A DNA stretch of 64,000 nucleotides from a virus, in the IMG/VR virus record IMGVR_UViG_3300013094_000036, positions 1 through 64,000 of that record, one strand, 5' to 3'. The notes under the pieces were generated by a model. That model searched no databases. It saw only the letters and a list, made by a program, of their open reading frames with translations, and had not been told where the DNA came from. Position numbers and translations under genes: made by a program. Shown in pieces: positions 10,594 to 52,185 of the stretch (its first letter is position 1; every line of letters begins with the position of its first letter).

Positions 10594-10597
10594 CTGG

Positions 10598-10651: not shown

Positions 10652-10831
10652 ATGGAAAACAACTATTTCATTGACGCTGATGCTGCATACGAAGCACGCT
10701 GGGAGCGTGATGAAACCTTCGATGACTTCGACAGTGCTGTCACCTGCGAGGAATACTACAACGAGCAAGAGTGGGACGAGCCGGATGTGGGCGAGGCCCA
10801 GGAGTGGGAATCCTTCGATCCCGACTGCTGA
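10652..10831 (+). CDS. Island gene 2, small very acidic protein
   Basis: The 59-residue protein is rich in Asp/Glu and aromatics (AYEARWERDETFDDFDSAV, EEYYNEQEWDEPDVGE). RBS AAGGAGCAAGCAAC. Its charge would suit a DNA mimic or protein-binding inhibitor, but that is only inferred from composition. Confidence 0.6.
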   Translation: MENNYFIDADAAYEARWERDETFDDFDSAVTCEEYYNEQEWDEPDVGEAQEWESFDPDC

Positions 10832-10838
10832 TTTTCGG

Positions 10839-10866
10839 TTGACACTGCAGGTGCTGGTGCTATTAT
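10839..10866 (+). promoter_or_regulatory. Island promoter 3
   Basis: TTGACA, 16-nt spacer, TATTAT. It is almost identical over about 40 nt to promoter 4 at 11249. Confidence 0.85.
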
Positions 10867-10891
10867 GCACCAGCCAGCAAGGAGCAAGACA

Positions 10892-11242
10892 ATGATCAAC
10901 GTTAATACTGTGTTATACACCTGCGGTGACGGCTACTGGAGCCGTGCGGCACGTGCTGTCACTGTCAAAGGACTGTTTGTCAGCTATGAATCTGACAACG
11001 CTGAGTTTGGCGAGCTGCGAGTATACTTTGACACTGCCAGCTGGAATGTCAACAAGCTGGGACTGATCTACACTGACAGCCAGTTCGAAACTGAACTGTG
11101 CGAGTTCCTCACCAGCATAGGGCTGGACGGCAGCGATGTTGGCTACAGCGAACACGGCATGCAGGGCAGCAAATATGTCAGCTTGGACGTGGGCAAAGAT
11201 TTCCTCAGCAGCTGGCATGCCAAGTTTGCTGTGGCTGTGTGA
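10892..11242 (+). CDS. Island gene 3, unknown
   Basis: The 116-residue protein (MINVNTVLYTCGDGYWSRAA...) has predicted beta-rich segments and two cysteines. It starts after AAGGAGCAAGACA. Composition is like the other island genes. Not recognised. Confidence 0.6.
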   Translation: MINVNTVLYTCGDGYWSRAARAVTVKGLFVSYESDNAEFGELRVYFDTASWNVNKLGLIYTDSQFETELCEFLTSIGLDGSDVGYSEHGMQGSKYVSLDVGKDFLSSWHAKFAVAV

Positions 11243-11248
11243 TTTTGG

Positions 11249-11276
11249 TTGACACTGCAGGTGTTGGTGCTATTAT
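11249..11276 (+). promoter_or_regulatory. Island promoter 4
   Basis: TTGACA, 16-nt spacer, TATTAT. Near-identical repeat of promoter 3, including the spacer (CTGCAGGTGTTGGTGC). Confidence 0.85.
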
Positions 11277-11300
11277 GCACTTGCAAACAAGGAGCAAAAC

Positions 11301-11519
11301 ATGAAATATATTGTTTATGGCGATTATGGCTATGTCAACGAGCAAGAGCTTTACAGCTGCAACAGCCGCGATCAATCTGTTGCGTGGGCAAAGAAATACT
11401 GCCGTCGCGACACAGGTGGCTACAACGTCATCGAAGTTGCTTACTTTGCCAATGACGGTGAATATGTGCCAGTGTGGCAGTTTGAAGCTGAAGAAGAATT
11501 GCTCTACGACGAGTTGTAA
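11301..11519 (+). CDS. Island gene 4, small acidic protein
   Basis: The 72-residue protein (MKYIVYGDYGYVNEQELYSC...) ends in the acidic run EAEEELLYDEL. RBS AAGGAGCAAAAC. Unknown function. Confidence 0.6.
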   Translation: MKYIVYGDYGYVNEQELYSCNSRDQSVAWAKKYCRRDTGGYNVIEVAYFANDGEYVPVWQFEAEEELLYDEL

Positions 11520-11525
11520 AAACCA

Positions 11526-11553
11526 TTGACCATTTCAAACATCGTGCTATAAT
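11526..11553 (+). promoter_or_regulatory. Island promoter 5
   Basis: TTGACC, 16-nt spacer, perfect TATAAT; drives the gene at 11578. Confidence 0.8.
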
Positions 11554-11577
11554 GATTCTGCAAGCAAGGAGCTATCA

Positions 11578-12078
11578 ATGAGTGATCGTACCTACACCGT
11601 TGCGGGGACCAGTGTGCAAAATGGCAAAAAGACTCTGCGTCTTGCCAACGGCACTGCTGCTGCTCGCAGCAAGATTTTAATCAAAGCAGGCTGCACAGAA
11701 GTGAAGTTGTTTGACTTGCCCCAGCCCATGTCTGCACCTGCTGCTCAAGCATGGCTGTTGTCGCAGGGCGATTCAGTGCCTGCCAGCGTGCCCAGCAGCA
11801 ACACTGCCAAACAGCGTAAAACTGCAGATCTAGCAGCTGCTAGTGCCAGCACAGAGCCTGTGGAAATTGCACACGAAGAGCTGGGGTTTGCTGCATCGGG
11901 TATGACGCGCGAATACTGGGACAATCAAAGTGTCATTGTGCGGCAAGAGATGTCTCGCAATGCTGCATGGGCTGCAGGCATCGAATGTGCTCGCGGTACT
12001 TATCCAGAGCTGGACATGTGGCTGGAAATGGAAGGCATTTTCACACACAACGATGGCACTTTGCAGGAGGCTGCCTAA
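11578..12078 (+). CDS. Island gene 5, unknown 166-residue protein
   Basis: The N-terminal 55 residues look like a compact basic domain (YTVAGTSVQNGKKTLRLANG), followed by an Ala/Ser/Pro-rich linker (to about residue 95) and an acidic helical C-terminal domain (MTREYWDNQSVIVRQEMS, YPELDMWLEMEGIF). RBS AAGGAGCTATCA. Two-domain organisation; no family recognised. Confidence 0.6.
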   Translation: MSDRTYTVAGTSVQNGKKTLRLANGTAAARSKILIKAGCTEVKLFDLPQPMSAPAAQAWLLSQGDSVPASVPSSNTAKQRKTADLAAASASTEPVEIAHEELGFAASGMTREYWDNQSVIVRQEMSRNAAWAAGIECARGTYPELDMWLEMEGIFTHNDGTLQEAA

Positions 12079-14935: not shown

Positions 14936-15325
14936 AGTAGAGGACAGTCCCGAGTAACCCCGGGGTTGGTGTTAGTTACCGCTAACACCTTACTCTACTA
15001 TTTATGATTGTATGAAGGAAAAAGAACAATTGACTGGACGCGGGGGGCAGTGCCCCGCCCGCTCCACCATAAGAGCATAAATTTACTTTGGTATTCCGTG
15101 TAAATTTACTTTGGTATTCCGTGTAAATTTACTTTGGTATTGTGTGCTTATGATGGGGGTGACTAGGTTCGATCAGCTGTGGTAAGGGTTGAGGTAGGCA
15201 ATGAGTAAGATACGACTCACAATCAGTTCAAAAACTATAAATGCCAACGATAATGTTGCATTTGAGGAAACTGCCCTAGCGGCATAACCTCATTGGGTAT
15301 GGGTTCCACCTAGAAACAGAACGGA
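14936..15325 (+). ncRNA. ssrA: Circularly permuted (two-piece type) tmRNA
   Basis: The order is acceptor piece, linker, coding piece. The acceptor piece runs from about 14936 (helix AGTAGAG/CTCTACT, inner GGTGTTAG/CTAACACC) to GCTCCACCA at 15061-15069, including a T-arm-like GGACGCGGGG region. A linker with three direct repeats follows. The coding piece starts GGGGTGACTAGGTTCGA at 15156; GGGGUG pairs with CGCUCC of the acceptor end. The tag frame at 15243-15287 reads ANDNVAFEETALAA then TAA, an alphaproteobacterial-type degradation tag whose ALAA end is recognised by ClpXP. tmRNA rescues stalled ribosomes together with host SmpB. The exact 3' limit of the coding piece is approximate. Confidence 0.93.
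15078..15146 (+). repeat. Three tandem repeats in the tmRNA linker
   Basis: A 23-nt unit (TAAATTTACTTTGGTATTCC plus GTG) occurs at 15078-15100, 15101-15123 and, partly, from 15124. It lies between the CCA end and the 5' end of the coding piece, the segment removed during maturation of permuted tmRNA. Flanking TAAGAGCA and TGCTTA can pair and prolong the acceptor stem in the precursor. Confidence 0.85.
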
Positions 15326-15429
15326 CTCAATTTCACCTGTATATTTTGACTTTTTCAAATCTATATATTATCTTTTAAATGTGGCACATAATTTGCCACA
15401 ACACACACAAACACAGAAAGGAAAATATC

Positions 15430-32422: not shown

Positions 32423-33667
32423 ATGACTGCAACAAAAGAATATCATCGCTGTAGTTTCTGTGAAAAGAATCAACAGCAAGTTAAAAAGCTTATAGCAGGA
32501 AATGATGTTTACATTTGTGATGAATGTGTAACTTTATGCTTTAGTATTTTAAAAAAGGAAGTTCCCAAAAATCTACCAGATGACTCTATCACACCTGCAA
32601 AAGTAAAAGAACGTTTAGACGAGCACGTTGTGGGACAAGATATTGCCAAAAGAACTTTGGCAGTTGCAATTTACAACCATATCAAGCGGATTAATAATCC
32701 AGAAATTGATGGTGTTACTATAGATAAAAGCAACATGCTTTTTATTGGTGGCTCTGGAACTGGCAAAACCTATACCATTCAGAATGTTGCGAAAATTCTT
32801 GATGTGCCATTCAGTATTGTTGATGCAACAAGCTTAACAGAAAGTGGTTATGTTGGTCTTGATGTTGAAGATGCTATTGCCAAATTATATCATGCAGCAG
32901 ACCAAGATGTAGCAAAAACTGAACGTGGTATTGTTTATATTGATGAGATTGATAAAAAAGGCCGCAAAGGCGAAAATGTCTCAATTACTAGAGATGTAAG
33001 CGGCGAAGGTGTTCAACAGGCTTTGCTTAAAATGATTGAGGGCTGTGAAGTAAAAATTCCACCACAAGGTGGTCGAAAAAATCCAAATGGAGACTTTGTA
33101 ACAATTAACACTAAAAATATTCTTTTTATTGTTGGTGGGTCGTTTGAAGGTCTTGACAAAATCATAGAAATCCGTCAAAATCACAATAATACAGGAATTG
33201 GATTTGGTTCAGTTGTTAAAGAACAAACAACAAAAATCAATAACTATGAACTTATCAAGCAGGTCAGAAGTGATGATCTTGTTAAGTTTGGAGTTATTCC
33301 TGAATTGATTGGTCGTCTTCCCATCGTTGTAACATTTGAAGACTTGAATGAAGAATCTTTGGTAAAAATTCTGACTGAACCAAAAAATGCTATTATCAAG
33401 CAATTTCAAAAGATGTTTGAACTAGATAATATTATTTTGGAGTTCACACCAGAAAGTTTAAAAGCAATTGCCTGTGAAGCAATTTTGCGGAAAACTGGTG
33501 CCAGAGGTCTTCGTAGTATTGTTGAACAAATTTTGCTTGGTGTTCAATTTGAATTGCCAACGCTTTTTAAATCTGGTGTTAAAAAAATCTGTATAACAAA
33601 GGAAACAGTTGAAAATATGAATGAACCTTTACGTGTCTATGCAAACGATCAGGATGTTGTATCTTGA
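32423..33667 (+). CDS. clpX: ClpX ATPase (protein unfoldase)
   Basis: The 414-residue full-length protein has an N-terminal C4 zinc-binding domain (CSFC...CDEC, residues 10-37), Walker A GGSGTGKT in place of the usual GPTGSGKT, pore loop SGYVGLD, Walker B IVYIDEIDK, SITRDVSGEGVQQALLKMIE, the tag-binding loop reading PPQGGRKN instead of PPQGGRKH, and the ClpP-docking IGFGS loop. It should dock to host ClpP and unfold tagged proteins, including those tagged by the phage tmRNA. The altered RKH loop may shift substrate choice. Its stop overlaps the IF3 start. Confidence 0.95.
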   Translation: MTATKEYHRCSFCEKNQQQVKKLIAGNDVYICDECVTLCFSILKKEVPKNLPDDSITPAKVKERLDEHVVGQDIAKRTLAVAIYNHIKRINNPEIDGVTIDKSNMLFIGGSGTGKTYTIQNVAKILDVPFSIVDATSLTESGYVGLDVEDAIAKLYHAADQDVAKTERGIVYIDEIDKKGRKGENVSITRDVSGEGVQQALLKMIEGCEVKIPPQGGRKNPNGDFVTINTKNILFIVGGSFEGLDKIIEIRQNHNNTGIGFGSVVKEQTTKINNYELIKQVRSDDLVKFGVIPELIGRLPIVVTFEDLNEESLVKILTEPKNAIIKQFQKMFELDNIILEFTPESLKAIACEAILRKTGARGLRSIVEQILLGVQFELPTLFKSGVKKICITKETVENMNEPLRVYANDQDVVS

Positions 33668-34633: not shown

Positions 34634-34694
34634 TTGAAGATGCCTAATAAGGGTCTTCAGTCTAAAACAAACTTTGCTTTTAAAGGAGGTAAAA

Positions 34695-35186
34695 ATGAGA
34701 AACATTACACTTACATCACCATTTGACGAACTTTTTCGCGATTTCAACCGTTTCGCAGTTGGATTCGAACCCACCTTTCGTATGTTAGATCAGGTTCGGA
34801 CCACCCAAAATAGTGGATATCCTCCATATGATCTGGAGTCATGCGGCGAAAATACCTACAAGCTGAGTATGGCTGTGGCAGGTTTTACTGCTGATGATCT
34901 AGACATTACTCTACAAGATGGAGTTTTGACTATCGAGGGTCGCGTAAATCAGGATGAAACTCGCACTTTCCTGCACAAAGGGATTGCCGGTCGTAGTTTC
35001 CGTCGTACTTTTTATCTAAATGCCTGGGTTCAGGTTACGGGTAGCAATCTTACCGATGGAATTCTGACTGTTGATTTTGTACAGGAAATTCCAGAAAGCC
35101 TTAAACCTCGTAAAATTTCAATTGGCAATAGCCAAGAAGAGGTAAAAGTGCTTGACGCCAAGACTTCTAAGAAGTCAGCCGCTTGA
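34695..35186 (+). CDS. Small heat-shock protein (Hsp20/IbpA family)
   Basis: The 163-residue protein has an N-terminal ITLTSPFDELFRDFNRFAVG, an alpha-crystallin domain with YPPYDLE, YKLSMAVAGFTADDLDITLQ and RSFRRTFYLNAWVQV, and a tail with PRKISI. Similar Hsp20 genes occur in T4-like cyanophages. ATG 34695 follows AAAGGAGGTAAAA. It holds unfolding proteins until ATPases such as Clp or DnaK act. Confidence 0.93.
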   Translation: MRNITLTSPFDELFRDFNRFAVGFEPTFRMLDQVRTTQNSGYPPYDLESCGENTYKLSMAVAGFTADDLDITLQDGVLTIEGRVNQDETRTFLHKGIAGRSFRRTFYLNAWVQVTGSNLTDGILTVDFVQEIPESLKPRKISIGNSQEEVKVLDAKTSKKSAA

Positions 35187-35231: not shown

Positions 35232-35540
35232 ATGACCAATGTAGAGACAGTTGAGGATGTTGAGACCGTCACTAAAATGGTCATGCGTCCTCCTAAACAA
35301 TTTAATGTTGTTTTATACAATGATGATACTACAACTGTAGAATTTGTAGTTCTTGTTCTTATGACTATCTTTCACAAGAACTTCAATGAGGCTAATGCAC
35401 TTACTATTGCTATTCACGAAAATGGCAAGGGTATTGCTGGAACATATAGTTTAGAAGTTGCAAATCAGAAACACGATGACACAATCAGTGCTGCAAGATT
35501 AAATGGGTTCCCACTGCGATGCAGTGTACAAGAATGTTAA
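35232..35540 (+). CDS. clpS: ClpS, N-degron adaptor for Clp protease
   Basis: The 102-residue protein has the ClpS core PPKQFNVVLYNDDTTTVEF (with the Asn-Asp-Asp that binds the N-terminal amine), the helix with VLVLMTIFHKN, and IHENGKGIAGTYSLEVA with the His that lines the N-degron pocket. The gatekeeper Met of E. coli ClpS is Val here. ClpS delivers proteins with bulky N-terminal residues to ClpA/ClpP or can inhibit other ClpA substrates. The stop overlaps the antisense gene by 4 nt. Confidence 0.95.
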   Translation: MTNVETVEDVETVTKMVMRPPKQFNVVLYNDDTTTVEFVVLVLMTIFHKNFNEANALTIAIHENGKGIAGTYSLEVANQKHDDTISAARLNGFPLRCSVQEC

Positions 35541-36865: not shown

Positions 36866-36940
36866 TGATTCGATATTAAGGTCTGTTATTTTCTGTTAAT
36901 GACGGTATTTAAATAATACCTAGATTATGAGAAAATAACC

Positions 36941-37405
36941 ATGTTAAAGTATTTTACTTTCTTTATGTTGATACCAATAGTTGTAGTTGCTGCACCGCTG
37001 CCTGATTTTACATTTAAAAATCCTGCATTTAATGGCAACAATTATGGCACATTTGAACTGCAGATTGAAAATACAGAATATACACGCCAACAGGCGGTAG
37101 AACAGGCTTTACAGGCTGCTAAACAGCAAGCAATAACTGCGGCCCAAAACACACCCCTCAATCAATTTTTATCCAATCTTCAAAGTAGAATTTATGCAGA
37201 AATAAGTCAGAATTTGGCAACATCTATGTTTCAAGCTGGTACTGCCACTTCTGGTAATTTTACCTTTCAGGGCAATACAATATTCTGGCAAAATCTAGGC
37301 AGTAGTATAAATTTAGTTGTCACTGACAATTTAGGTAATAGCACAACAATAAATGTACCACTAGGTTCATTTACCTTCACACAGACAGTTCCAGGATCGC
37401 AATGA
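36941..37405 (+). CDS. csgF: CsgF-like curli assembly factor
   Basis: The 154-residue protein has a signal peptide (MLKYFTFFMLIPIVVVAAPL) and then DFTFKNPAFNGNNYGT, the conserved CsgF N-terminus that plugs the CsgG pore (FxNPxFGGNP). The C-terminal strand region INLVVTDNLGNSTTINVP also matches. CsgF couples the secretion pore to nucleation of curli fibres at the cell surface. It is the first gene of a six-gene unit and overlaps csgG by 4 nt. Confidence 0.88.
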   Translation: MLKYFTFFMLIPIVVVAAPLPDFTFKNPAFNGNNYGTFELQIENTEYTRQQAVEQALQAAKQQAITAAQNTPLNQFLSNLQSRIYAEISQNLATSMFQAGTATSGNFTFQGNTIFWQNLGSSINLVVTDNLGNSTTINVPLGSFTFTQTVPGSQ

Positions 37406-38229
37406 TGACAAGACTTATATTTTTATCATTGGGTATCGTATCAATCTTGATTTTACCCAGCTGTGCTGTACTCCAAAAAACTGGACAGGAAATTGGAGTA
37501 GAATATAAACCAAAACTTGAACATATTTCTTTACAAAAAGAATTTGATTCAATTCCGCCCCCTGCTAATGGAAAAATTACTGTTGCTGTGTATAACTTTA
37601 GAGATTTAACAGGACAACGAAAACCATCTGCAACATATGCAAGTTTCAGTACAGCAGTTACACAAGGGGCGGAACTATTTCTTATAAAAGCCCTGCAGGA
37701 AGTTGGACATGGAACTTGGTTTGATGTGGTTGAACGCACATCAGTGGATGATTTAATAAAAGAACGAACAATAATAAAGCAGATGCGTGAAGCATATGAA
37801 GGTAAAAATTCACAACAATTGCCACCTATGCAATTTGCAGGAATTATTATGGAAGGTGGCATTATTGGTTATGACAGTAGCATTGAATCAGGCGGTGCTG
37901 GCTATCAGTGGTTGGGAATAGGTCCCCAAACACAATACAGCAAAGATGTAGTTACTGTAAGTCTCCGAGCAGTATCAGTTGCAACTGGTAAAGTTCTAGT
38001 AAGTGTTTCTGTTACAAAAATTATCTACAGTACCGCTGACAACATAGCTGTGTTGAAAAGTTGGCAGCAAGGAACTCAGATTTTTATGGCAGAAACAGGG
38101 TTAACAATCAATGAACCTGTTTCACTTGCTGTGAAAACAACAATTGAAGCAGCAGTTGTTGAATTGATAAATGAAGGTAAACATAAAGGCGTCTGGTCAT
38201 TTGCAACACCAGTGCAACAAGAAGAATAA
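37402..38229 (+). CDS. csgG: CsgG-like outer-membrane curli secretion channel
   Basis: The 275-residue lipoprotein (lipobox LPSC, Cys21) matches CsgG: VAVYNFRDLTGQRKP, SFSTAVTQGAELFLIKAL with the constriction Phe (Phe56 equivalent), WFDVVERTSVDDLIKERTII, FAGIIMEGGIIGYDSS and VSLRAVSVATGKVLVSVSVT. CsgG forms a nonameric pore that exports curlin subunits. Some constriction residues differ from E. coli (Tyr51 and Asn55 equivalents), so cargo selection may differ. Confidence 0.93.
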   Translation: MMTRLIFLSLGIVSILILPSCAVLQKTGQEIGVEYKPKLEHISLQKEFDSIPPPANGKITVAVYNFRDLTGQRKPSATYASFSTAVTQGAELFLIKALQEVGHGTWFDVVERTSVDDLIKERTIIKQMREAYEGKNSQQLPPMQFAGIIMEGGIIGYDSSIESGGAGYQWLGIGPQTQYSKDVVTVSLRAVSVATGKVLVSVSVTKIIYSTADNIAVLKSWQQGTQIFMAETGLTINEPVSLAVKTTIEAAVVELINEGKHKGVWSFATPVQQEE

Positions 38230-38294
38230 CTGTTGTTATTATTGATATCATGGATAGTATTAATAAATTTAAAATAATTGCCAAGGAAAAGCAC

Positions 38295-39173
38295 ATGAAA
38301 TATCTATCAGTGAAGAATTTAGGTAAGATTTTAATGGCTTTCTGTGCCATATATGCATCTGTAATTACCCTGGGACAGGCAGATGACAATAGTATATATA
38401 TTCAACAGAGTGGCAACAACACTGTTGTCTCCATGGACCAAGAAGGCACCGGCAACATTGTTCGCGGAATACAAGGCATAGGCAGCGATAACACAACACC
38501 TGCTAAGATTACAGGTGATTCCAACACAGTATCAGTAACGCAAATTGGTACAGGCAATACTTTAAATTTTGGTATCTCAACATTAATAGCAAATGGTGGT
38601 GTTTTTGGTGGCAATTTCAGTTACTCAGTGACAGGCAATAATGCCACCGCCACAATAGATTCAAATAAAGATGGGAATAATACAAGTCAAAGCAACAATG
38701 TGGTAATAGATCAATCAGGAAATTTTGCAAATGCCAATGTAAATGTCCTGGGAAGCCTTAACAGTGTAACTGCTACAACAAGTGGTGGTAATTACAACTC
38801 ATATACAGGAACTGTCAATGGAAATAATAATACACAAAATGTTTCAGTATCTCAGGGGGGAAACAACACTGTGGAAATTAATCAAGGTGTTGGAGGTTCA
38901 GCGGTTAATAACACGGTGTTAAATCTTGGTACAGTTGGAACAACTACATACAACTATGGTGGTACTGCCAGTGTGACCATACAAGGTGACAGCAATTCTG
39001 CCAGTGTTCAACAATCAGGTGTAAATGGATTTACCAATACAACGGTTCTGAATCTAAATGGCAGTAGCAATACAGCAAATGTGGTTCAAAGTGCTGTGGG
39101 TGGTAATACCACTGTTAATATATCAAGTTATGGAAGCAGTAATATATTCACAGTAACAAGCAAAAATTATTGA
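38295..39173 (+). CDS. Curlin-repeat protein (amyloid fibre subunit candidate 1)
   Basis: Starting at MKYLSVKNLGKILMAFCAIY (signal peptide; ATG 38295 with RBS AAGGAAAAGCAC) the 292-residue protein consists of Asn/Gly/Ser/Thr/Gln-rich repeats such as IYIQQSGNNTVVSMDQEGTG, VVIDQSGNFANANVNV and VSVSQGGNNTVEINQG, i.e. the curlin Qx..GxxN pattern. It lies directly after csgG and its stop overlaps the FecR gene. Likely secreted through CsgG. Confidence 0.85.
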   Translation: MKYLSVKNLGKILMAFCAIYASVITLGQADDNSIYIQQSGNNTVVSMDQEGTGNIVRGIQGIGSDNTTPAKITGDSNTVSVTQIGTGNTLNFGISTLIANGGVFGGNFSYSVTGNNATATIDSNKDGNNTSQSNNVVIDQSGNFANANVNVLGSLNSVTATTSGGNYNSYTGTVNGNNNTQNVSVSQGGNNTVEINQGVGGSAVNNTVLNLGTVGTTTYNYGGTASVTIQGDSNSASVQQSGVNGFTNTTVLNLNGSSNTANVVQSAVGGNTTVNISSYGSSNIFTVTSKNY

Positions 39174-40252
39174 TCAAGGAAAAGGCGTTGGAAAAAATCT
39201 TTACTGTATTTTTTCTCACAGCCATTGTCTGTTGTTTCACTCAAGCCAGAGCAGAAATTGGAATTATTTCTTCTCATGAAAATAATCCGGCACAAATCAC
39301 ACGCAGTGATAAAAAAATTGCAGGTGTTAAAGGTGTGACTGTTGAAATGGCTGATATTGTGGAAACCACAGACGGAAAAGCGAATATTAAATTTAAAGAT
39401 GATACCGTGGTGGAAGTAAATGATCACAGCAAACTGGAAATAGATGAGTTTGTCTATGATTCAAAAACACCGGCTGCGTCAAAACTTTCCATGAATTTTG
39501 CTGCAGGAACTTTGAGATATGCCAGTGGAGCCATTGCCCATAACAACCCAAGTCAAGTCGATATTCACACACCGAGTGCAACCATTGCAGTGCGAGGAAC
39601 TGATTTTGCAGCCACCACCGATGAAACAGGTGCAAGCACTATTATACTGTTACCTAGCTGTCCAACACACTGGCAAGATATAAACAATGACTGCAAAACT
39701 GGAATAATTGATGTGTATAACAGTGAAGGTTCGGTTACACTTACAAAACCATTTGAAGGCACCAAAATACAAAACAGCAGCATTTCTCCAAGCAAACCGG
39801 TTACTTTAAATCTTTCTTTTGGAGCAATTAACAATTTATTAATTGTTAGTCCACCTGCTGGATTGAATAATTCTACTGCTAAAAGCGGAAAGTCTAAAAA
39901 TGATCTGAATATGAATTTTTTAGAAGATAGTGCAGACTTATTGGATAACATTTTTGTGGCAATAAAAGAAAATACAGATAATAGTCTGCAAACAAGTAGT
40001 TATTCAATCAATAACAATGAAGATGCAGCAATACTGCGGGTTTTCCCAGAATATAAAAAATCCTCTGGTGTTCAACCCAAAATTGACTCAACTGAAGAGC
40101 AACTTTGCCGACAAGATGGGGTACATAATACACAGTGCATAGGTATTCCTGCTGGACAAAATACTGCAATTACACAAACACAGAAAAATATCACTGTGAT
40201 AAACAGAGCATATAGTGGCGGAAATTCAACTATTATATTGAAGCAGAATTAA
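39170..40252 (+). CDS. FecR-domain protein with curlin-like C-terminus
   Basis: The start is TTG 39170 overlapping the previous stop. It has a signal peptide (IFTVFFLTAIVCCFTQARA), then a FecR domain: GVKGVTVEMADIVETTDGKA, NIKFKDDTVVEVNDHSKLEI, GTLRYASGAI and TPSATIAVRGTDFAA. Residues 230-290 are a linker, and the end (ITQTQKNITVINRAYSGGNS) has the curlin-like QxN pattern. FecR domains outside siderophore sensing often occur beside CHASE2 cyclases, consistent with a surface-state sensor. Confidence 0.85.
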   Translation: MIKEKALEKIFTVFFLTAIVCCFTQARAEIGIISSHENNPAQITRSDKKIAGVKGVTVEMADIVETTDGKANIKFKDDTVVEVNDHSKLEIDEFVYDSKTPAASKLSMNFAAGTLRYASGAIAHNNPSQVDIHTPSATIAVRGTDFAATTDETGASTIILLPSCPTHWQDINNDCKTGIIDVYNSEGSVTLTKPFEGTKIQNSSISPSKPVTLNLSFGAINNLLIVSPPAGLNNSTAKSGKSKNDLNMNFLEDSADLLDNIFVAIKENTDNSLQTSSYSINNNEDAAILRVFPEYKKSSGVQPKIDSTEEQLCRQDGVHNTQCIGIPAGQNTAITQTQKNITVINRAYSGGNSTIILKQN

Positions 40253-40253
40253 T

Positions 40254-41057
40254 ATGAGAAACTTTTTTTGCTGGTTTATTATTTTTATTTCGTTTTTGCC
40301 AAGTATTGCGTGGTCACAAACAGCAAGTGAACTGGAACAGATAAAATATAACTCAGCCCAAATTGCTCGTTTAGGAATTGTAGATAACACAATAATTTTA
40401 AACAACATTGGAAATGCAAATCAAATTTACATTGAACAAGTTGGTAATAATCAATCGGTATCAGGAATAGGACAACTATCAGTGCCAATTACTGGCAATA
40501 ACAACACCATTACATTGCATCAAGGTGATACTATTTCTCATCAACCGCAAAATCTGGTTGCAATGAGTGTAAATGGCAACTTTAATTCATTAAACTTAAA
40601 TCAAGGTCCCGATTTAACAGGAACCAGCACAGGCACAGATCAAGGTTCGCATTATCAACTTATTGCTGTGAATGGTGACTCGAACACGATTTCAACTGCA
40701 CAAACTGGATTCAATCATTATGCAGAGGTCAATATTACTGGCAGTTACAATTCCCAAACACTACTGCAAACAGGCAGTAATCATCAGGCATACACTGCAA
40801 TTAACGGCAACAACAATAATTTAATTACTACACAGACAGGTTCAGGTGGTCATGTTGTTGATGTAAGTCTTGCTGGCAACAATAGCGGTGTGAATGTCAC
40901 ACAAACTGGAGAATTACAAAATCGTGCCACTGTATCTATTACAAATACTGGAGGTCCTACAGGATTGAATTTAACCCAATCAGGTGGAGCATCATTTTAT
41001 ATGCAACAGACCTGTATTTCCACTGCTGGCTGTGGAATAACCACTGTAAAACAATAA
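40254..41057 (+). CDS. Curlin-repeat protein (amyloid fibre subunit candidate 2, CsgB-like)
   Basis: The 267-residue protein has a signal peptide (FFCWFIIFISFLPSIAWSQT) and repeats of the form NQIYIEQVGNNQSV, NTISTAQTGFNHYAEVNI and SQTLLQTGSNHQAYTAI. Two C-terminal cysteines (CISTAGC) may form a disulfide. It begins 1 nt after the FecR gene. Being shorter and distinct in sequence, it could act as a nucleator. Confidence 0.85.
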   Translation: MRNFFCWFIIFISFLPSIAWSQTASELEQIKYNSAQIARLGIVDNTIILNNIGNANQIYIEQVGNNQSVSGIGQLSVPITGNNNTITLHQGDTISHQPQNLVAMSVNGNFNSLNLNQGPDLTGTSTGTDQGSHYQLIAVNGDSNTISTAQTGFNHYAEVNITGSYNSQTLLQTGSNHQAYTAINGNNNNLITTQTGSGGHVVDVSLAGNNSGVNVTQTGELQNRATVSITNTGGPTGLNLTQSGGASFYMQQTCISTAGCGITTVKQ

Positions 41058-41079
41058 TCGTTATTCCATAAATAATTTT

Positions 41080-43134
41080 ATGTTTAAGAAAATCGCAATA
41101 TCCCCATGGATGGCCTGTGTTACTTTGGTGTTGCTACTTGTGGTTCGGGCAATGGATCCTAGTTTTGTACAAAGTGTGCGACTGCGTTATTTTGACACAC
41201 TGATCACCTCTCAGCCCAGACAAGAAAACAATATAGTGGTGGCAGACATAGATGAAAAAACACTAGACAAACTGGGTCAATGGCCATTCAAGCGTGATGA
41301 ATACGCCAAAATCATTGATGAGTTATATTCACATGGTGCTGGCCTGGTGGTCTGGGATGTATTGATGCCAGAACATGATAGACTGGGAGGCGATGATGTA
41401 TTAGCAGAAACACTAAAACACCACAAGGTAGTTCTAGTAAATGTGCCTGCTGCACAACAAAAGAATTTACCTCGCAAACCAGGCTCTACTATAATCAACA
41501 GTCAGTTTAGTGATGTGATAATGCAATATCCTGGTATTATTGCCAACATTCCCGAACTGGAATCTACCGCTGCTGGTATCGGTACAACACATACCCTGCC
41601 TGAAATTGATGGAGTAAATCGTCGCTTGCCATTGGTGGTTGCCAGTCAAGGACAATTATTTCCCAGTCTTGCCATGGAAGTGCTGCGTCTAGCAGCAGGT
41701 GACAAAGGTTTTCAATTGAAACTCAGTGAAATTGGTGTTGATAAACTTCGTATTCCTAAATTTGGTCCAATCTCAACAGACCCGCTCGGTAGAATATGGA
41801 TTGACTGGAGCCAGGGCTATAAAACTATTTCTGTCAGTGCAATACCTGAGAATTTGCAAGGTGCAATAGTAATAGTTGGTGCCAGTGCAGCAGGCATAGC
41901 AAATCCTGTTGCCACTGCGAAGGGAGCAGTATTTCCTCAAGATTTACAAGCCACTGTGATAGGTACGCTGGCCAACAAGGTCAATATAACCAGACCAGAC
42001 TATGCAGACGGTGCTGAGATTTTAACCATTTTTGCCATTGGATTGTTGATAATAGTAATATCCACATGGACATGGGCGTTTGTTCCCATCATAGTATTGC
42101 TGATAGCAAGCCATTTTGCTGCCGCATATGTATATGAAAAATATAGAATTTTAATAGATATTACTGGTTTTTTATTTTCAATAGCAATAGTGTATATGCA
42201 TGCTTACACTGTCAAGTTTGTTAGAGAATATCTACAGAAACAGCAGATCAAAAAACAATTTGAGCATTATTTGGCACCGACTATGGTAAAAAAATTACAG
42301 CAAAATCCTGCTTTGTTAAAATTAGGCGGAGATACCAGAGAACTAACAATACTATTTTGTGATATTAGAGGTTTTACTCCGATTAGTGAGCAATACAAAA
42401 CAAATCCACAAGGTCTTACAAGATTAGTTAATAGGTTCCTAACTCCCATGACAGACATTATCATGCGTAATGAAGGAACTATAGACAAATATATGGGGGA
42501 TTGTATTATGGCATTTTGGAATGCACCTATAGCAGTTCCGCAGCAACAAGAGCAGGCTGTGAAAAGTGCCACGGAAATGTTGAAACATTTGACCTTGTTA
42601 AATGCTGAATTAACCCAAGAAGGTCTATTACCCATCAACATAGGTATAGGAATCAACACTGGTGAAGTTGTTGTGGGAAACATGGGCAGTAATCAAAGAT
42701 TTGATTACAGTTGTCTGGGAGATGCTGTAAATCTTGCCAGCAGACTAGAAGGTCAGAGTAAAGAATATGGTGTCAAAATCATACTTGGTCATGACACTGT
42801 GCAAGCACTTGGTGGTAATTGGGTTCCTGTGGAATTGGATAACATTGCTGTCAAGGGCAAAATAGAAGGTGTGAAAATATTTACAATTATCAGTCATCAC
42901 AGCAAGAGTCGCCCACAAAATATAACCATTGCCATGAGTCAGCATGAAAAGTTTTTATCTGCATACAGAACACAACGCTGGGATAGAGCACTGATATTGG
43001 GCAAAAGCCTCACTTCTGCATGGAATAGTGAATTAAAAGATTATTACAAAATGATGATAAACCGTATTGAGCAACTGAAACAAGATCCACCTGGTGCTGA
43101 CTGGGACACAATTTATCGTTCAAAAACCAAGTGA
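41080..43134 (+). CDS. CHASE2-domain class III adenylate cyclase
   Basis: The 684-residue protein has an N-terminal TM helix, a periplasmic CHASE2 sensor (RYFDTLITSQPRQENNIVVA, DVLMPEHDRLGGDD, LPLVVASQGQLFPSLAMEVL), three TM helices (about residues 310-375), and a cyclase domain. The cyclase has both metal Asp residues (LFCDIRGFTPIS and MGDCIMAFWNAP) and the catalytic VNLASRLE with Asn and Arg. It should make cAMP (or another cyclic nucleotide) in response to an envelope signal. It is the last gene of the curli-type unit, 22 nt after it. Confidence 0.92.
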   Translation: MFKKIAISPWMACVTLVLLLVVRAMDPSFVQSVRLRYFDTLITSQPRQENNIVVADIDEKTLDKLGQWPFKRDEYAKIIDELYSHGAGLVVWDVLMPEHDRLGGDDVLAETLKHHKVVLVNVPAAQQKNLPRKPGSTIINSQFSDVIMQYPGIIANIPELESTAAGIGTTHTLPEIDGVNRRLPLVVASQGQLFPSLAMEVLRLAAGDKGFQLKLSEIGVDKLRIPKFGPISTDPLGRIWIDWSQGYKTISVSAIPENLQGAIVIVGASAAGIANPVATAKGAVFPQDLQATVIGTLANKVNITRPDYADGAEILTIFAIGLLIIVISTWTWAFVPIIVLLIASHFAAAYVYEKYRILIDITGFLFSIAIVYMHAYTVKFVREYLQKQQIKKQFEHYLAPTMVKKLQQNPALLKLGGDTRELTILFCDIRGFTPISEQYKTNPQGLTRLVNRFLTPMTDIIMRNEGTIDKYMGDCIMAFWNAPIAVPQQQEQAVKSATEMLKHLTLLNAELTQEGLLPINIGIGINTGEVVVGNMGSNQRFDYSCLGDAVNLASRLEGQSKEYGVKIILGHDTVQALGGNWVPVELDNIAVKGKIEGVKIFTIISHHSKSRPQNITIAMSQHEKFLSAYRTQRWDRALILGKSLTSAWNSELKDYYKMMINRIEQLKQDPPGADWDTIYRSKTK

Positions 43135-43135: not shown

Positions 43136-43471
43136 CTAGCCATTCCCAGCAGATGCTTCATTTTCTTCATCAGATTTCTTTTTTTCGTGTGCTCGTTGAT
43201 TGATAATTTTTTCAGCCTCGACACGCTCATGTTCGATGGTTTTGCCACGAAGATACAACACCGTATTGACCTTTTGATTGAGCCTTATAAGATCATTGTC
43301 TAATACTCTGATGCGATCAATCAATGCAATCAACACACCGTTTGCATCACTTAATACAGGTTTTACTTCTTGTGTACACCATTCCCACACACGATGTATT
43401 ATAAATCCCATGCCAACTGCCATCACAACAGGGAATCCATATTTGGTTATTATGTCTGCTATTTCGTTCAT
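43136..43471 (-). CDS. Holin-like small membrane protein 1
   Basis: The 111-residue protein has one N-terminal TM helix (YGFPVVMAVGMGFIIHRVWE), then a coiled coil and a charged C-terminus. It is a paralogue of the next antisense protein (shared GFPVVxAxxxG, LIALxxR, DxIRxxxxV). Proteins of this design in phages are often annotated as holins. Confidence 0.6.
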   Translation of the reverse strand: MNEIADIITKYGFPVVMAVGMGFIIHRVWEWCTQEVKPVLSDANGVLIALIDRIRVLDNDLIRLNQKVNTVLYLRGKTIEHERVEAEKIINQRAHEKKKSDEENEASAGNG

Positions 43472-43489: not shown

Positions 43490-43771
43490 TCAGTCTCTTC
43501 TAGCATCTGTTTTGCCATCAGCACGGCCAATTCTATCTAAATCTGGCCGGATACCCAATGCACTTGAAACCAAAGTATCAATGCGTATAACATCTGCATT
43601 CATGGTTTTAACCCGATTATCCAGTGCTGTGATAATACCTGCCATGCCTTTTATGCTGCTGAGCACGCCACCCAACAGCAATTTGATAGTGAGATAAACA
43701 AAGTATCCTCCTGCAATGGCAGCCACTACTGGAAATCCCAAATCACCAATAAGTTTAAAAATTTCTGTCAT
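43490..43771 (-). CDS. Holin-like small membrane protein 2
   Basis: The 93-residue protein has an N-terminal TM segment (LGFPVVAAIAGGYFVYLTIK) and a short coiled coil (ITALDNRVKTMNADVIRIDT). It is in tandem with and homologous to the protein at 43136; holin/antiholin pairs are often such paralogues. Confidence 0.6.
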   Translation of the reverse strand: MTEIFKLIGDLGFPVVAAIAGGYFVYLTIKLLLGGVLSSIKGMAGIITALDNRVKTMNADVIRIDTLVSSALGIRPDLDRIGRADGKTDARRD

Positions 43772-48015: not shown

Positions 48016-51000
48016 ATGGCACTTAACTTTCCTTATCCAGCAACACAAGATCAAATTTATCTAGCTCCTAATGGAGTGACATATGTATATGATGGTCATA
48101 AATGGGTTGTACAACCCACTTCACCCACTGGCAATCTAATACTGTCAAACAATGTTATCACCAGCAATAATTTAGGTAATATCTATATTGACAGTAATAA
48201 TTTTACCTGGACATTTGATAACACTGGTGGATTGGTATTTCCAGACAATACTGTGCAAACTACAGCAGGTGGTGGCGGTAACATCAATACTGGCAATATA
48301 CGATTCAGGGGTGACGCCATTTATGATTTCAACGGCATCATTGTTGAGAACGCAGATTTATTACATGGTGCCACTGCGGCATTAATTTTACCTGCCAATG
48401 GTGATACTTCGGATATATTTCTGAATAGACTATATGGTGGCGTTACCATAGGAACCGGTCCTGCCAATGCTATAACCAATCAGTGGGAGTTTGGTTCTGA
48501 TGGTACATTAAACTTGCCTGCTGCCAGCAATGGCAATGCTGTCATACAAAGTTTATCTCCGATAGAACTAAATTCCCAAAATAATATTTGGATATTTAAA
48601 ACAGATGGTAATTTAGAATTGCCTATAATTTTTGGGCAAGACACATCAATAGGCACCACATTTAATACCAATCCACCAGGCCATACATTGACATTAAAAT
48701 ATAATGGTGGGGTCAATGATGGAAGTGGTGGAGAACTGCAGTTTAATTATGGAACAGCTGAGATTAATGTTGTCAAAGATGCAGGTATAACTAGAACTTG
48801 GACCTTTGGTTCAGATGGAGTATTAACCCTGCCAGATGGTGGTTATCTTGACGATAATGGTGGAATTACTCGTCTTGGTGCAGCCGGTAACATGGGTGTA
48901 CAAATAGGCAGCAGTGATCAGCAAAATTATGTTACTGCCAGCGATATAGGCGTAACAATACAGACTCTTGCAGATACAGTCAACAGCCTATGGGTTTTTG
49001 ACATCAACGGTGCGATAACCATGCCTCTACATACTAGGCTGAACAGCGGTGGTATTGGCAACACAAATAGTGCAGAGTTTGGTACGGTAGTCAACACCTA
49101 TACTGACAATGGCATAGTACAGAACAGCCAGATATACATGAGCGCTGGCACTGGCGAAGCTCGCATACTAGTTAACATGGAAGGCCAAACTCTGGTCTAT
49201 TACGGCACTGAAGAAGTATATAACCCCAACTTCACTGGCATGGTCAGCATGGATCCAAATGTACGCAGTCAGTATGCCATGAGCGCGGACGACAACGGTA
49301 ACATACTGATTGGAGGCGCACAGATCGGTGGCACGCTGGTCAGCAGCGACTATATTGCTGGTATTGGTTCATTGAACAGCGACTATAACATGAACGGGCT
49401 TTATGCTGACACCAAGTCCACCTTGGTCAGCGGACTTGGCAATGTGCGTGTACAAAGCGGCGGCGGCCTGATCTGGCAGTTTAATTCAGATGGAACACTT
49501 ACATTACCCAACTCTTATAATTCTTTATATCAGACTGATAACGCATTAATAAAATCTATTGCAAATATACAAATAAGTGCAGGAGAAAGTTCCCTAATAT
49601 TTGCCACTGATGGCAATTTAACAGTGCCCAATATTCTTAATGTTGGTGTTACAACTTATATTGGCAGTAACAGTATTGGCAATGTGCCAGCAGCAGCCCT
49701 GAATCTAAACAATTCAGGAGCACCTGGTCAACTGCTAACACAGTTGACCCTGATCAACACTGCAGGCAACGGTGGTACTGGCAGTGCCATTGATTTCTAC
49801 ACATATACCAATCAGGGCAATGGAATTCCTGGTGCTCGATTACAATCTATAGATGATGACAATTATAGTGGTATTTTCAGCATAGCCTTAAAAGGACCAG
49901 GTAGTGGCGGCAACAACGATTTGACTACTTTTTGGACATTTGGTCCTGATGGCAGTTTGACATTTCCAGATGGCAGCAAACAAACTTCTGCTTATCAGGT
50001 TCCAGATATAGTAATAACTGGGTCCTGGGCGTATGAGTTTATGTTTGACATTACAAACACTTGGTCATCAAACTATTCTCAACCTGTTATTAAAGTTGAT
50101 AGATTAGTATATAATGAAAATGGTCATGGCAATACATTGACTAGTTTTACATTCAACAATGTTGTTTATATACAAAACGACTTTGATTTTGAAAACGATA
50201 CAATATTGACTTCAATAAGCATGCCAAAACTAATTTATGTGGGCGGAAATTTCAATATATCATATGATGACGCTTTAACAAATTTAGATATTTCTTTGTT
50301 AACAACAGTCGATGGCAACTTTTATCCCAATAACAATAATGCACTGACAGTAATTTCGGTACCTGCATTGACCACAGTAGGCGGAAACTTTTATCCCAAT
50401 TACAATCATGCTCTTGAATCAATGAATTTGACATTTTTGTCTTCAGTGGGTGGTGATTTTGATCCCAATAACAATACCTTATTGACAGAAATTAATGTTC
50501 CTGTATTAACCGCAGTCGGTGGTGGATTCTATCCCAATTACAATCCTGCTATGATATCCATGGATTTGACATCGCTGTCCTCAGTAGGTGGTGATTTTGA
50601 TCCCAACAGCAATAATTCACTCACGACAATTTCCGTGCCTGCACTGACCACAGTCGGTGGTTCTTTCTATCCCAATTACAATCCTGCTATGGTATCCATG
50701 GATTTGACATCGCTGTCCTCAGTAGGTGGTGATTTTGATCCCAATAACAATACCAGTCTTACAACAATTTCGGTACCTGCATTGACCACAGTCGGTGGTG
50801 AATTCTATCCCAATTACAATCCTGCTATGGTATCAATGGACTTGATATTATTGTCTTCAGTGGGTGGTGATTTTGATCCCAATAACAATACCAGTCTTAC
50901 AACAATTTCGGTACCTGAATTGACCACAGTCAGTGGTGCTTTCTATCCCAATAGCAACAATTCACTCACTGAAATTTCTGTACCTGCATTAACCACAATT

Positions 51001-52185
51001 GGTGGTGTCTTTTCTCCCAATTACAATTCTGTTCTGGTATCCATGGATTTGTCACAATTGGCTTCAGTAGGTGGTGGATTTGGTCCAAATCATAATCCAC
51101 TACTAACAGCAATTTCAGCACCTGCATTAACATCGGTTGGGGGCGGTGACTTCAACCCTTATAACAACGATTCACTCACTGAAATTTCAGTTCCTGTATT
51201 GGCTACAATTGGCGGCGGTCTTGGTATACAATTTAATTATTCACTTACAGAAATTTCAATGCCTGCGTTGACCACAATTGGTGGTCGGTTTTATCCCAAT
51301 AATAATTTATTAACAGCAATTTCAACACCTGTATTGACCACAATTGGCGGTGATTTTGTTCCAAATGAAAATACTGATCTGCTATCTATGGATTTGACAT
51401 TGTTGTCATCAGTGGGTGGCAATTTTAGACCTTTTAATAACGATTCATTGCCAGCGATTAATGTACCTGCATTGACCGCAATTCATGGTGATTTTTATCC
51501 CAATTACAATCCTGCACTGGTATCAATGGATTTGACATTATTGTCTTCAGTTGGGGGCGGGTTTTATCCCAATACCAATACTTCTCTTACAGCCATTTCA
51601 GTACCTGCATTGACAACAGTGGGCCATGACTTTAATCCCAATGCCAATCCTGCTCTGATATCCATGGATTTGACATCGTTGGTATCGGTTGGCGGTAGTT
51701 TTTATCCCTATAACAATAATTCACTTACCGCAATTAGTGTACCTGCATTGACCACTATTGGTGGTGATTTTTATCCCTACGGCAACAATTCACTTACTGA
51801 AATTTCTGCCCCTGTATTGACCACAATTGGCGGTAGTTTTCATCCTAATACAAACAGTTCACTTGTCACTGTGAATATTCCTGCAATAGAGTCAATTTCT
51901 GGAGTAATTGTAGATAATGCGACTACACAACCCTGGGCCACATTCAACATTGGCAATTCACTGAAACATCTTGGTGGAGATGTGGCATTGACTGGCATGG
52001 CATTTGATCAGACATCAGTGGATAATTTGCTTGTTGCACTGGCAGCACTTGATGGAACAAACGGTACCACACTGTATGAAAATCACACAGTGATCATTAC
52101 GGGCACCAGTTCTGCACCCAGTGCAACAGGGCTAGCCGCCATTGCAACTTTACAAGCACGCGGTTGTACAGTGACAACAAATTAA
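48016..52185 (+). CDS. Large repeat-rich tail-fibre/receptor-binding-like protein
   Basis: The 1389-residue protein begins MALNFPYPATQDQIYLAPNG, a T4-like fibre N-terminus. Residues 60-660 have recurring WxFGxDGxLxLP units (for example WTFGSDGVLTLPDGG), common in phage neck/tail fibres. From about residue 700 to 1290 there are about 26 copies of a 22-24 residue solenoid repeat, LTxISVPALTTVGGxFYPNxN, like receptor-L/leucine-rich repeats. The end (DNLLVALAALDGTNGTTLYE) is a cap often found on such repeats. Probably adhesive. Bases about 49040-49480 are markedly more GC-rich than their surroundings. Confidence 0.8.
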   Translation: MALNFPYPATQDQIYLAPNGVTYVYDGHKWVVQPTSPTGNLILSNNVITSNNLGNIYIDSNNFTWTFDNTGGLVFPDNTVQTTAGGGGNINTGNIRFRGDAIYDFNGIIVENADLLHGATAALILPANGDTSDIFLNRLYGGVTIGTGPANAITNQWEFGSDGTLNLPAASNGNAVIQSLSPIELNSQNNIWIFKTDGNLELPIIFGQDTSIGTTFNTNPPGHTLTLKYNGGVNDGSGGELQFNYGTAEINVVKDAGITRTWTFGSDGVLTLPDGGYLDDNGGITRLGAAGNMGVQIGSSDQQNYVTASDIGVTIQTLADTVNSLWVFDINGAITMPLHTRLNSGGIGNTNSAEFGTVVNTYTDNGIVQNSQIYMSAGTGEARILVNMEGQTLVYYGTEEVYNPNFTGMVSMDPNVRSQYAMSADDNGNILIGGAQIGGTLVSSDYIAGIGSLNSDYNMNGLYADTKSTLVSGLGNVRVQSGGGLIWQFNSDGTLTLPNSYNSLYQTDNALIKSIANIQISAGESSLIFATDGNLTVPNILNVGVTTYIGSNSIGNVPAAALNLNNSGAPGQLLTQLTLINTAGNGGTGSAIDFYTYTNQGNGIPGARLQSIDDDNYSGIFSIALKGPGSGGNNDLTTFWTFGPDGSLTFPDGSKQTSAYQVPDIVITGSWAYEFMFDITNTWSSNYSQPVIKVDRLVYNENGHGNTLTSFTFNNVVYIQNDFDFENDTILTSISMPKLIYVGGNFNISYDDALTNLDISLLTTVDGNFYPNNNNALTVISVPALTTVGGNFYPNYNHALESMNLTFLSSVGGDFDPNNNTLLTEINVPVLTAVGGGFYPNYNPAMISMDLTSLSSVGGDFDPNSNNSLTTISVPALTTVGGSFYPNYNPAMVSMDLTSLSSVGGDFDPNNNTSLTTISVPALTTVGGEFYPNYNPAMVSMDLILLSSVGGDFDPNNNTSLTTISVPELTTVSGAFYPNSNNSLTEISVPALTTIGGVFSPNYNSVLVSMDLSQLASVGGGFGPNHNPLLTAISAPALTSVGGGDFNPYNNDSLTEISVPVLATIGGGLGIQFNYSLTEISMPALTTIGGRFYPNNNLLTAISTPVLTTIGGDFVPNENTDLLSMDLTLLSSVGGNFRPFNNDSLPAINVPALTAIHGDFYPNYNPALVSMDLTLLSSVGGGFYPNTNTSLTAISVPALTTVGHDFNPNANPALISMDLTSLVSVGGSFYPYNNNSLTAISVPALTTIGGDFYPYGNNSLTEISAPVLTTIGGSFHPNTNSSLVTVNIPAIESISGVIVDNATTQPWATFNIGNSLKHLGGDVALTGMAFDQTSVDNLLVALAALDGTNGTTLYENHTVIITGTSSAPSATGLAAIATLQARGCTVTTN
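50280..51870 (+). repeat. Tandem repeat array in the fibre gene
   Basis: Units of about 69 nt (paired as about 138 nt) repeat with high similarity at DNA level, for example 50560-50760 versus 50690-50890 (shared CCCAATTACAATCCTGCTAT and TCAGTAGGTGGTGATTTTGA). Such arrays can expand or shrink by slippage or recombination. Confidence 0.85.

What the first reader, a model, noticed from the sequence alone, without database searches (positions are those of the whole stretch)
36941..43134. A complete curli-type secretion operon with a sensory adenylate cyclase on a phage genome
Six tightly spaced + strand genes encode CsgF, CsgG, curlin-repeat protein 1, a FecR-domain protein, curlin-repeat protein 2 and a CHASE2 adenylate cyclase. 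Intergenic gaps are overlaps to about 65 nt, and signal peptides or a lipobox are present on all secreted parts. CsgG/CsgF and curlin repeats are established as the amyloid fibre export system; FecR next to CHASE2 cyclases is a known bacterial pairing. Such a set inside a T4-like phage region is, to my knowledge, undescribed. It could make infected cells aggregate, build biofilm around infected cells, or be virion-linked. CsgC, CsgD and CsgE are not in the window.
Basis: partly seen in the sequence, partly recalled or inferred. Interest (0 to 1): 0.96.

Follow-up and report, generated by a model that had tools for sequence, protein, structure and literature searches.

The report
Curli-type fibre operon in jumbo phages
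This phage carries a complete set of genes for exporting curli-like amyloid fibres from the cell it infects, together with a membrane cyclase; the same gene set is already published in marine SAR11 and OM43 phages, but here it sits in a different, apparently jumbo-phage lineage.

Summary
The six genes are real and correctly placed: CsgF, CsgG, curlin-repeat 1, FecR-domain, curlin-repeat 2, CHASE2 adenylate cyclase. They lie on a genuine phage genome: 45 IMG/VR loci carry a close CsgG and most share flanking genes. The claim that the set is undescribed is wrong. The same six-gene order is annotated in Methylophilales phage Melnitz and present in Pelagibacter phage HTVC008M, and papers of 2020-2022 discuss it.

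New here:
(1) The window and its relatives form a separate CsgG clade with jumbo-phage markers: topoisomerase II nearest the 469-490 kb phages Phosso and Atu_ph07, one relative a 265,680-bp contig, relatives' terminases nearest PA5oct-like phages.
(2) A T4-late-type motif (TAAATA) precedes csgF in 26 of 32 loci, against 6.4 in shuffles.
(3) A pair of small paralogous single-TM proteins adjoins the operon wherever enough flank is held, so the module looks eight genes long.
(4) A Hyphomonas chromosome carries csgF-csgG-curlin-FecR-CHASE2 cyclase in the same order and is the closest sampled bacterial relative of the phage CsgGs.

Most likely a late-expressed type VIII secretion module that puts curlin fibres on infected cells, with a periplasmic FecR/CHASE2-cAMP sensing arm. 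No experiment shows fibres; function is inferred.

The parts
36905..36918 (+). T4-late-promoter-like element (TATTTAAATAATAC), TTTAAATA starting 33 nt upstream of csgF
   Evidence: sequence; TAAATA in the 130 nt before csgF in 26 of 32 dereplicated loci against a shuffle mean of 6.4 (max 14); TAAATACT in 16 of 32 against 0.4; none before csgG
36941..37405 (+). CsgF: secreted CsgG-associated chaperone/cap
   Evidence: Pfam PF10614 59 bits, E 7e-16; phrog_35372
37402..38229 (+). CsgG: outer-membrane lipoprotein secretion pore
   Evidence: PF03783 E 5e-48; PDB CsgG 4uv3/6si7 E about 1e-42; 41-68% identity to other phage CsgGs
38250..39173 (+). Curlin-repeat protein 1 (CsgA-like subunit)
   Evidence: 17-member family profile hits the E. 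coli CsgA fibre 8enq E 2.4e-5 and 8c50 E 2.3e-26; invariant Q/G/N ladder; predicted beta-rich solenoid-like model, pLDDT 78
39170..40252 (+). Secreted FecR-domain protein with a C-terminal all-beta domain ending in two conserved Gln 21 residues apart
   Evidence: PF04773 in 21 of 21 members; AF2 model matches FecR/PupR-type domains 4m0h and 6ovk; Q338 and Q359 invariant in 18 phage FecRs
40254..41057 (+). Curlin-repeat protein 2
   Evidence: PF07012 29.6 bits, above cut-off
41080..43134 (+). CHASE2 adenylate cyclase with complete class III catalytic residues (D428, K470, D474, D542, N551, R555)
   Evidence: PF05226 E 1e-39, PF00211 E 2e-20; catalytic residues; PDB cyclases E down to 4e-38
43136..43471 (-). 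Small single-TM protein B of the associated pair (phrog_18771; weak similarity of residues 1-21 to a holin PHROG)
43490..43771 (-). Small single-TM protein A of the associated pair (conserved C-terminus DAR[RK]D)
   Evidence: 48-85% identity across phage lineages
34674..35186 (+). Hsp20 small heat-shock protein, conserved upstream neighbour
   Evidence: PF00011 E 3e-16; homologue upstream of csgF in 34 related loci
35232..35540 (+). ClpS adaptor, conserved upstream neighbour
   Evidence: PF02617 E 5e-26; homologue in 35 related loci
32423..33667 (+). ClpX-like AAA+ unfoldase with C4 zinc finger, upstream neighbour
   Evidence: PF06689 E 2e-17 and AAA_2 E 1e-26; in 6 related loci

Best explanation
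This is a phage-encoded type VIII (curli) secretion module, switched on as one late transcript, that makes the infected Gram-negative cell export curlin-repeat proteins. The five secreted parts carry signal peptides or a lipobox (by eye) and the cyclase is a membrane protein. CsgG is expected to form the outer-membrane pore and CsgF its exit cap. The two curlin-repeat proteins are the exported subunits, which should stack into beta-solenoid amyloid fibres on the cell. The FecR-domain protein is secreted to the periplasm and, with the CHASE2 cyclase (sensor facing the periplasm, cyclase in the cytoplasm), would form a sensing arm that converts the state of export or of the envelope into cAMP. 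Two small single-TM proteins nearby belong to the same unit and may act at the inner membrane. The likely benefit is fibres deposited around the cell shortly before lysis, keeping new hosts or virions close. Shown by sequence: gene content, order, conservation, cyclase residues, late-type motif. Inferred: pore and fibre formation, cAMP signalling, timing, and the benefit.
For: Pfam and PDB matches for the parts. Whole-unit retention: FecR in 39 of 39 loci with at least 2 kb after csgG, cyclase in 22 of 22 with at least 7.5 kb, small pair (at least one member) in 13 of 13 with at least 3.3 kb past the cyclase (near-identical contigs not removed). The same order in two other phages. Curlin Q/G/N ladder kept at about 45% mean column identity. 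Catalytic residues kept in the window's cyclase. Late-type motif concentrated before csgF and absent before csgG, which fits one transcript; the cyclase often has its own. Bacterial counterpart with the same order on a Hyphomonas chromosome.
Against: No CsgE gate found. No clumping was seen in Melnitz cultures (PMC9004378). Some relatives carry cyclases lacking two catalytic positions, so cAMP output may not be general. Nothing here shows fibres or secretion. The motif is a consensus match, not a mapped promoter, and TAAATA also occurs before 68 of 212 other ORFs in these loci.
Confidence: 0.6

Rival explanations
1. Pore-and-lysis model (proposed for Melnitz, PMC9004378): CsgG/CsgF act mainly as a gated hole that helps depolarise or open the envelope at lysis, and the other genes tune its timing.
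For: Late-type motif before csgF; a pair of small single-TM proteins next to the operon in all lineages seen, both with a weak holin-PHROG hit; no CsgE gate found; no clumping in Melnitz culture.
Against: Curlin genes with the conserved Q/G/N ladder and a matched FecR are retained throughout, which a bare pore would not need. The CsgG pore lies in the outer membrane and would not by itself depolarise the inner one. The holin hit covers only about 20 residues.
Confidence: 0.17
2. Uptake model (raised in PMC7029224 and PMC9599517): the ungated CsgG channel imports larger nutrients or iron complexes for the infected cell.
For: No CsgE found; a FecR domain is present, and FecR is best known from iron uptake.
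Against: The FecR here begins with a signal-peptide-like helix and has no N-terminal anti-sigma region, and no sigma factor or TonB receptor lies in the operon. CsgF and two curlins are unexplained.
Confidence: 0.06
3. Virion-linked fibres: curlin proteins assemble on or with released virions as adhesins.
For: Late-type motif; subunits are small and repetitive.
Against: All subunits appear exported by a Sec plus CsgG route, away from cytoplasmic virion assembly; no link to structural genes was found.
Confidence: 0.07
4. Artefact: a bacterial operon misassembled or mis-binned into a phage contig.
For: The operon type is bacterial in origin.
Against: 45 IMG/VR loci with a close CsgG; shared neighbours in 20-35 of them; a second contig with topoisomerase and csgG the same 21,430 bases apart as in the window; complete genomes of isolated phages with the same order; no GC step.
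Confidence: 0.01

Closest known systems
Pelagiphage T8SS (curli) partner-AMG module, PMC9599517; HTVC008M NC_020484
   Same: CsgF, CsgG, curlin, FecR, curlin, CHASE2 cyclase in the same order
   Different: CsgG about 44% identical and in a separate clade (99/95 support); the phage here is a jumbo-type lineage with Hsp20/ClpS neighbours; the small pair lies downstream on the other strand here, upstream of csgF there. That paper reports a histidine kinase, sometimes two, upstream; in HTVC008M that position holds two roughly 93-aa single-TM proteins with no kinase match.
Methylophilales phage Melnitz curli operon, PMC9004378; MZ577095-98
   Same: Same six-gene order, annotated as such in the record
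   Different: The Melnitz cyclase is of the type lacking two catalytic positions, the window's is complete; the paper text treats csgA/csgB as missing, although the record annotates two curlin-repeat proteins.
Hyphomonas sp. TMED17 chromosomal curli-FecR-CHASE2 operon (L053)
   Same: csgF-csgG-curlin-FecR-CHASE2 cyclase in the same order, ordinary bacterial genes on both sides; closest sampled bacterial CsgG to the phages (97/95)
   Different: One curlin gene instead of two; FecR lacks the Gln-containing C-terminal tail; no small TM pair found in the locus; CsgG branch is long, so placement is less sure.
E. coli csgBAC/csgDEFG curli system
   Same: CsgG, CsgF and curlin repeats
   Different: No CsgE found; FecR and CHASE2 cyclase are part of the operon; curlins diverged and about 270-310 aa.

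Membership tests
Type VIII (curli) secretion system | CsgG outer-membrane lipoprotein pore | tested here: met
   PF03783 E 5e-48; PDB CsgG E about 1e-42
Type VIII (curli) secretion system | CsgF | tested here: met
   PF10614 E 7e-16
Type VIII (curli) secretion system | Curlin-repeat subunit(s) | tested here: met
   Curlin 2 above the Pfam cut-off; curlin 1 family profile to CsgA E 2.4e-5, though the single protein is below the Pfam cut-off
Type VIII (curli) secretion system | CsgE periplasmic gate (present in E. coli; absent in the alphaproteobacterial arrangement according to PMC9599517) | tested here: not met
   No PF10627 match in 15 records, control E. coli rings; phage records are fragments
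Type VIII (curli) secretion system | Amyloid fibres exported through CsgG | not testable with these tools
   needs expression and EM / Congo red
Pelagiphage T8SS module (PMC9599517) | Gene order CsgF-CsgG-CsgA/B-FecR-CsgA/B-AC | tested here: met
Pelagiphage T8SS module (PMC9599517) | Monophyly of phage CsgG apart from bacteria | tested here: met
   22 phage rows one clade, 97/87
Pelagiphage T8SS module (PMC9599517) | Upstream histidine kinase | tested here: not met
   The conserved neighbours are about 90-130-aa single-TM proteins with no kinase match in Pfam; equating them with the paper's HK is my inference
FecR-type anti-sigma iron regulator | FecR domain | tested here: met
FecR-type anti-sigma iron regulator | Cytoplasmic anti-sigma N-terminus, with sigma factor and TonB receptor partners | tested here: not met
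   Protein starts with a signal-peptide-like helix (2-23) followed by the FecR domain; no such partners in the operon
Class III adenylate cyclase | Two metal Asp, Lys/Asp adenine pair, Asn and Arg | tested here: met
   D428, D474, K470, D542, N551, R555
T4-superfamily jumbo phage | T4-type genes nearest to phages over 200 kb | tested here: met
   Topo II subunits 50-53% identical to Atu_ph07 and Phosso; terminases of two relatives nearest PA5oct-like
T4-superfamily jumbo phage | Genome over 200 kb | tested here: inconclusive
   Window record is a 72,148-bp fragment; one relative's contig is 265,680 bp
T4-superfamily jumbo phage | Gp23-type capsid on the same contigs | tested here: inconclusive
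   PF07068 found nothing in 15 records, but the control did not ring either

The most novel reading that the evidence does not exclude
The unit is really an eight-gene, late-expressed phage module (curli pore, cap, two curlins, FecR, CHASE2 cyclase and a pair of phage-specific small membrane proteins). It entered phages once, from a bacterium with a Hyphomonas-like operon, and was then passed between unrelated families including jumbo phages. The FecR/CHASE2 arm senses fibre export in the periplasm and, with the small membrane pair, couples it by cAMP to lysis.
Probability: 0.2. Interest if true: 0.8.

Novelty: new member of a known kind. Interest (0 to 1): 0.5.

Why it matters
Phage-made curli would be a rare case of a virus remodelling the outside of its host with amyloid. 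The published cases are phages of streamlined marine SAR11 and OM43 hosts. Finding the same unit in a jumbo-phage lineage says it is a transferable fitness module, not a quirk of one phage group. The constant retention of FecR, the cyclase and two small membrane proteins gives specific, testable partners, and the late-type motif favours roles acting near lysis.

Tried and rejected
(1) Reading the FecR C-terminal tail as a true curlin repeat: two Gln invariant in 18 phages, 21 residues apart, and an all-beta model, but profile comparison gave probability under 4% and P about 0.01, and Pfam found no Curlin_rpt in any of 21 members. Kept as a hint only.
(2) Gp23 capsid as phage marker: uninformative, since the control did not ring.
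(3) Foldseek of the curlin 1 model: no confident match.
(4) Sampling site of the IMG/VR contigs: dataset numbers not found in any paper, so freshwater versus marine is not claimed; the host is not identified.
(5) Sigma-70 and terminator scans of the operon: not informative.
(6) CsgF against PDB by single sequence: no hit, although Pfam CsgF is clear.
(7) The idea that the set is undescribed: rejected.
(9) Window topoisomerase as a marker of the related contigs: found only in the near-identical contig G979 among 27 others, so the link to the 265-kb contig rests on shared neighbours and the CsgG tree.
Full report
WHAT IS THERE. The window is 64 kb of a 72,148-bp IMG/VR virus record. Pfam supports CsgF, CsgG, FecR, curlin 2, CHASE2 and the cyclase above their curated cut-offs; curlin 1 alone is below it. 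A profile of 17 curlin 1 orthologues matches the solved E. coli CsgA fibre (8enq, E 2.4e-5) and another curlin (8c50, E 2.3e-26), keeps an invariant Q/G/N ladder and is modelled as a many-stranded beta protein, apparently a solenoid, with pLDDT 78. CsgG matches solved CsgG pores at about 1e-42.

IS IT PHAGE DNA. Yes. PHROGs hold families for CsgF, CsgG, FecR and the cyclase. The window carries T4-type topoisomerase II subunits, NrdB, homing endonucleases and other phage families. A scan of IMG/VR found 45 loci with close CsgG relatives. One of them (L002, contig G979) is identical over CsgG and has topoisomerase and csgG the same 21,430 bases apart as the window (my subtraction). Homologues of the window's Hsp20 and ClpS recur upstream of csgF in 34 and 35 loci, a 410-aa unknown protein in 30 and a further small protein in 22. 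GC does not step at the operon.

IT IS ALREADY DESCRIBED. HTVC008M and four Melnitz genomes hold CsgG at about 44% identity, in the identical six-gene order. PMC7029224 reported CsgF/CsgG in pelagimyophages and proposed 'sibling capture'. PMC9004378 proposed a lysis role and saw no clumping. PMC9599517 described CsgF, CsgG, CsgA/B, FecR, CsgA/B and AC in podo- and myo-pelagiphages, with alphaproteobacterial ancestry. The literature library is limited to open-licence PMC papers.

WHAT IS NEW: LINEAGE. The window's topoisomerase II subunits are nearest to Sinorhizobium phage Phosso (469 kb) and Agrobacterium phage Atu_ph07 (490 kb) at 50-53% identity. Terminases on two related contigs, one of 265,680 bp, are nearest PA5oct-like 286-kb phages at 52-53%. 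No paper in the library joins 'jumbo phage', 'curli' and 'CsgG'. The window's own genome size is unknown, so 'jumbo' is an inference from relatives. In the careful CsgG tree the window clade (17 rows, 99/95) and the marine clade (5 rows, 100/98) are sisters within one phage clade (97/87).

WHAT IS NEW: REGULATION. TAAATA, the core of the T4 late promoter, lies within 130 nt upstream of csgF in 26 of 32 dereplicated loci against a shuffle mean of 6.4 and maximum of 14. TAAATACT does so in 16 of 32 against 0.4. Neither occurs before csgG (0 of 32), while the cyclase has TAAATA in 11 of 18; 68 of 212 other ORFs in these loci have it too, as expected of a promoter used elsewhere. That TATAAATA marks T4 late promoters is from my own knowledge. 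Late expression is an inference.

WHAT IS NEW: A BIGGER UNIT. FecR is present in 39 of 39 loci with 2 kb after csgG, and the cyclase in 22 of 22 with 7.5 kb. A pair of paralogous single-TM proteins (window 43136-43471 and 43490-43771, both - strand) adjoins the operon in 13 of 13 loci with 3.3 kb beyond the cyclase (two of these show one member only). In the marine phages, in MAG contigs L049, L054 and L115, and in L009, L024, L025, L027 and L028, the pair sits directly upstream of csgF on the same strand. These proteins have no Pfam kinase match. I suspect they are what PMC9599517 calls one or two histidine kinases upstream, but I did not examine that paper's genomes.

WHAT IS NEW: ORIGIN. 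Of 80 CsgG loci from bacterial genomes and MAGs, only Hyphomonas sp. TMED17 has csgF-csgG-curlin-FecR-CHASE2 cyclase on a contig that is clearly chromosomal (705 kb, bacterial flanks). Samples of its order, class and phylum gave no second FecR of that strength among roughly 1,030 genomes. Its CsgG groups with the phages (97/95), though on a long branch. PMC9599517 states that FecR and AC are not within bacterial curli operons; this is a counter-example. Direction of transfer cannot be settled from one bacterium.

FecR AND CYCLASE. FecR has a signal-peptide-like helix, a FecR domain whose model matches FecR/PupR-type structures (4m0h, 6ovk), and a C-terminal all-beta domain. It lacks the anti-sigma region of true FecR, so an iron-regulator role is unlikely. 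Its tail has two invariant Gln but is not demonstrably a curlin repeat. FecR-CHASE2 cyclase neighbours without curli also exist in bacteria (L137, L142, L145, L149), which supports the two as a functional pair. The window's cyclase has all class III catalytic residues, whereas Melnitz and many relatives have a second type in which the adenine-binding Asp and the transition-state Asn are replaced. The two types are scattered, which suggests repeated exchange of this gene.

VERDICT. The headline of novelty is not supported. It is a new member, in a new phage lineage, of a published phage curli module, with some new anatomical facts that make its role testable.

Noticed in passing
L008:9042-9443 and equivalents in 13 loci: A stand-alone protein of about 130 aa resembling the region after the cyclase domain of the CHASE2 cyclase lies just upstream of csgF in several loci; no Pfam match. 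Possibly a regulator of the cyclase.
   Followed up: partly
Cyclases of L005, L014, L026, L033, L035-L039, L041, L047, L049: Second cyclase type: catalytic Asn replaced by Ser and adenine Asp by Ser or Gly, scattered among phages with the complete type.
   Followed up: partly
L015:15414-18377: The cyclase gene is in two pieces with a GIY-YIG-like homing endonuclease ORF (by eye) and another ORF between them; intron, HEG insertion or split gene.
   Followed up: no
L006:9974-11158 and other relatives: Phage CsgG with a C-terminal SH3 domain extension; L008 and L023 lack the lipobox Cys.
   Followed up: no
L005:13766-15697, L036:10039-12033: Large secreted outer-membrane-like protein of about 650 aa between curlin/FecR and the cyclase in some relatives.
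   Followed up: no
window 32423-33667, 34674-35186, 35232-35540: Phage-encoded ClpX-like unfoldase, Hsp20 and ClpS close together upstream of the operon; Hsp20 and ClpS conserved across relatives.
   Followed up: partly
window 14972-15378: tmRNA, tag ANDNVAFEETALAA, best in Rfam as permuted/alphaproteobacterial tmRNA.
   Followed up: no
window 10001-12000: GC rises to 0.49 against 0.36-0.41 on either side.
   Followed up: no
window 48016-52185: 1389-aa protein with weak leucine-rich-repeat (BspA-like) similarity, below cut-off; no PHROG.
   Followed up: no
L049, L050, L054, L062, L115: MAG contigs labelled Rhodobacteraceae, Pirellulales, Pelagibacter and Flavobacteriales hold the phage-type operon at GC 0.35-0.38 and fall in or beside the phage clade: probably phage contigs binned into MAGs.
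   Followed up: partly
OR851715.1: A 1,499-bp record called Salmonella phage S.Kent 1-2-1 contains csgG; likely host DNA or a mislabelled fragment.
   Followed up: no
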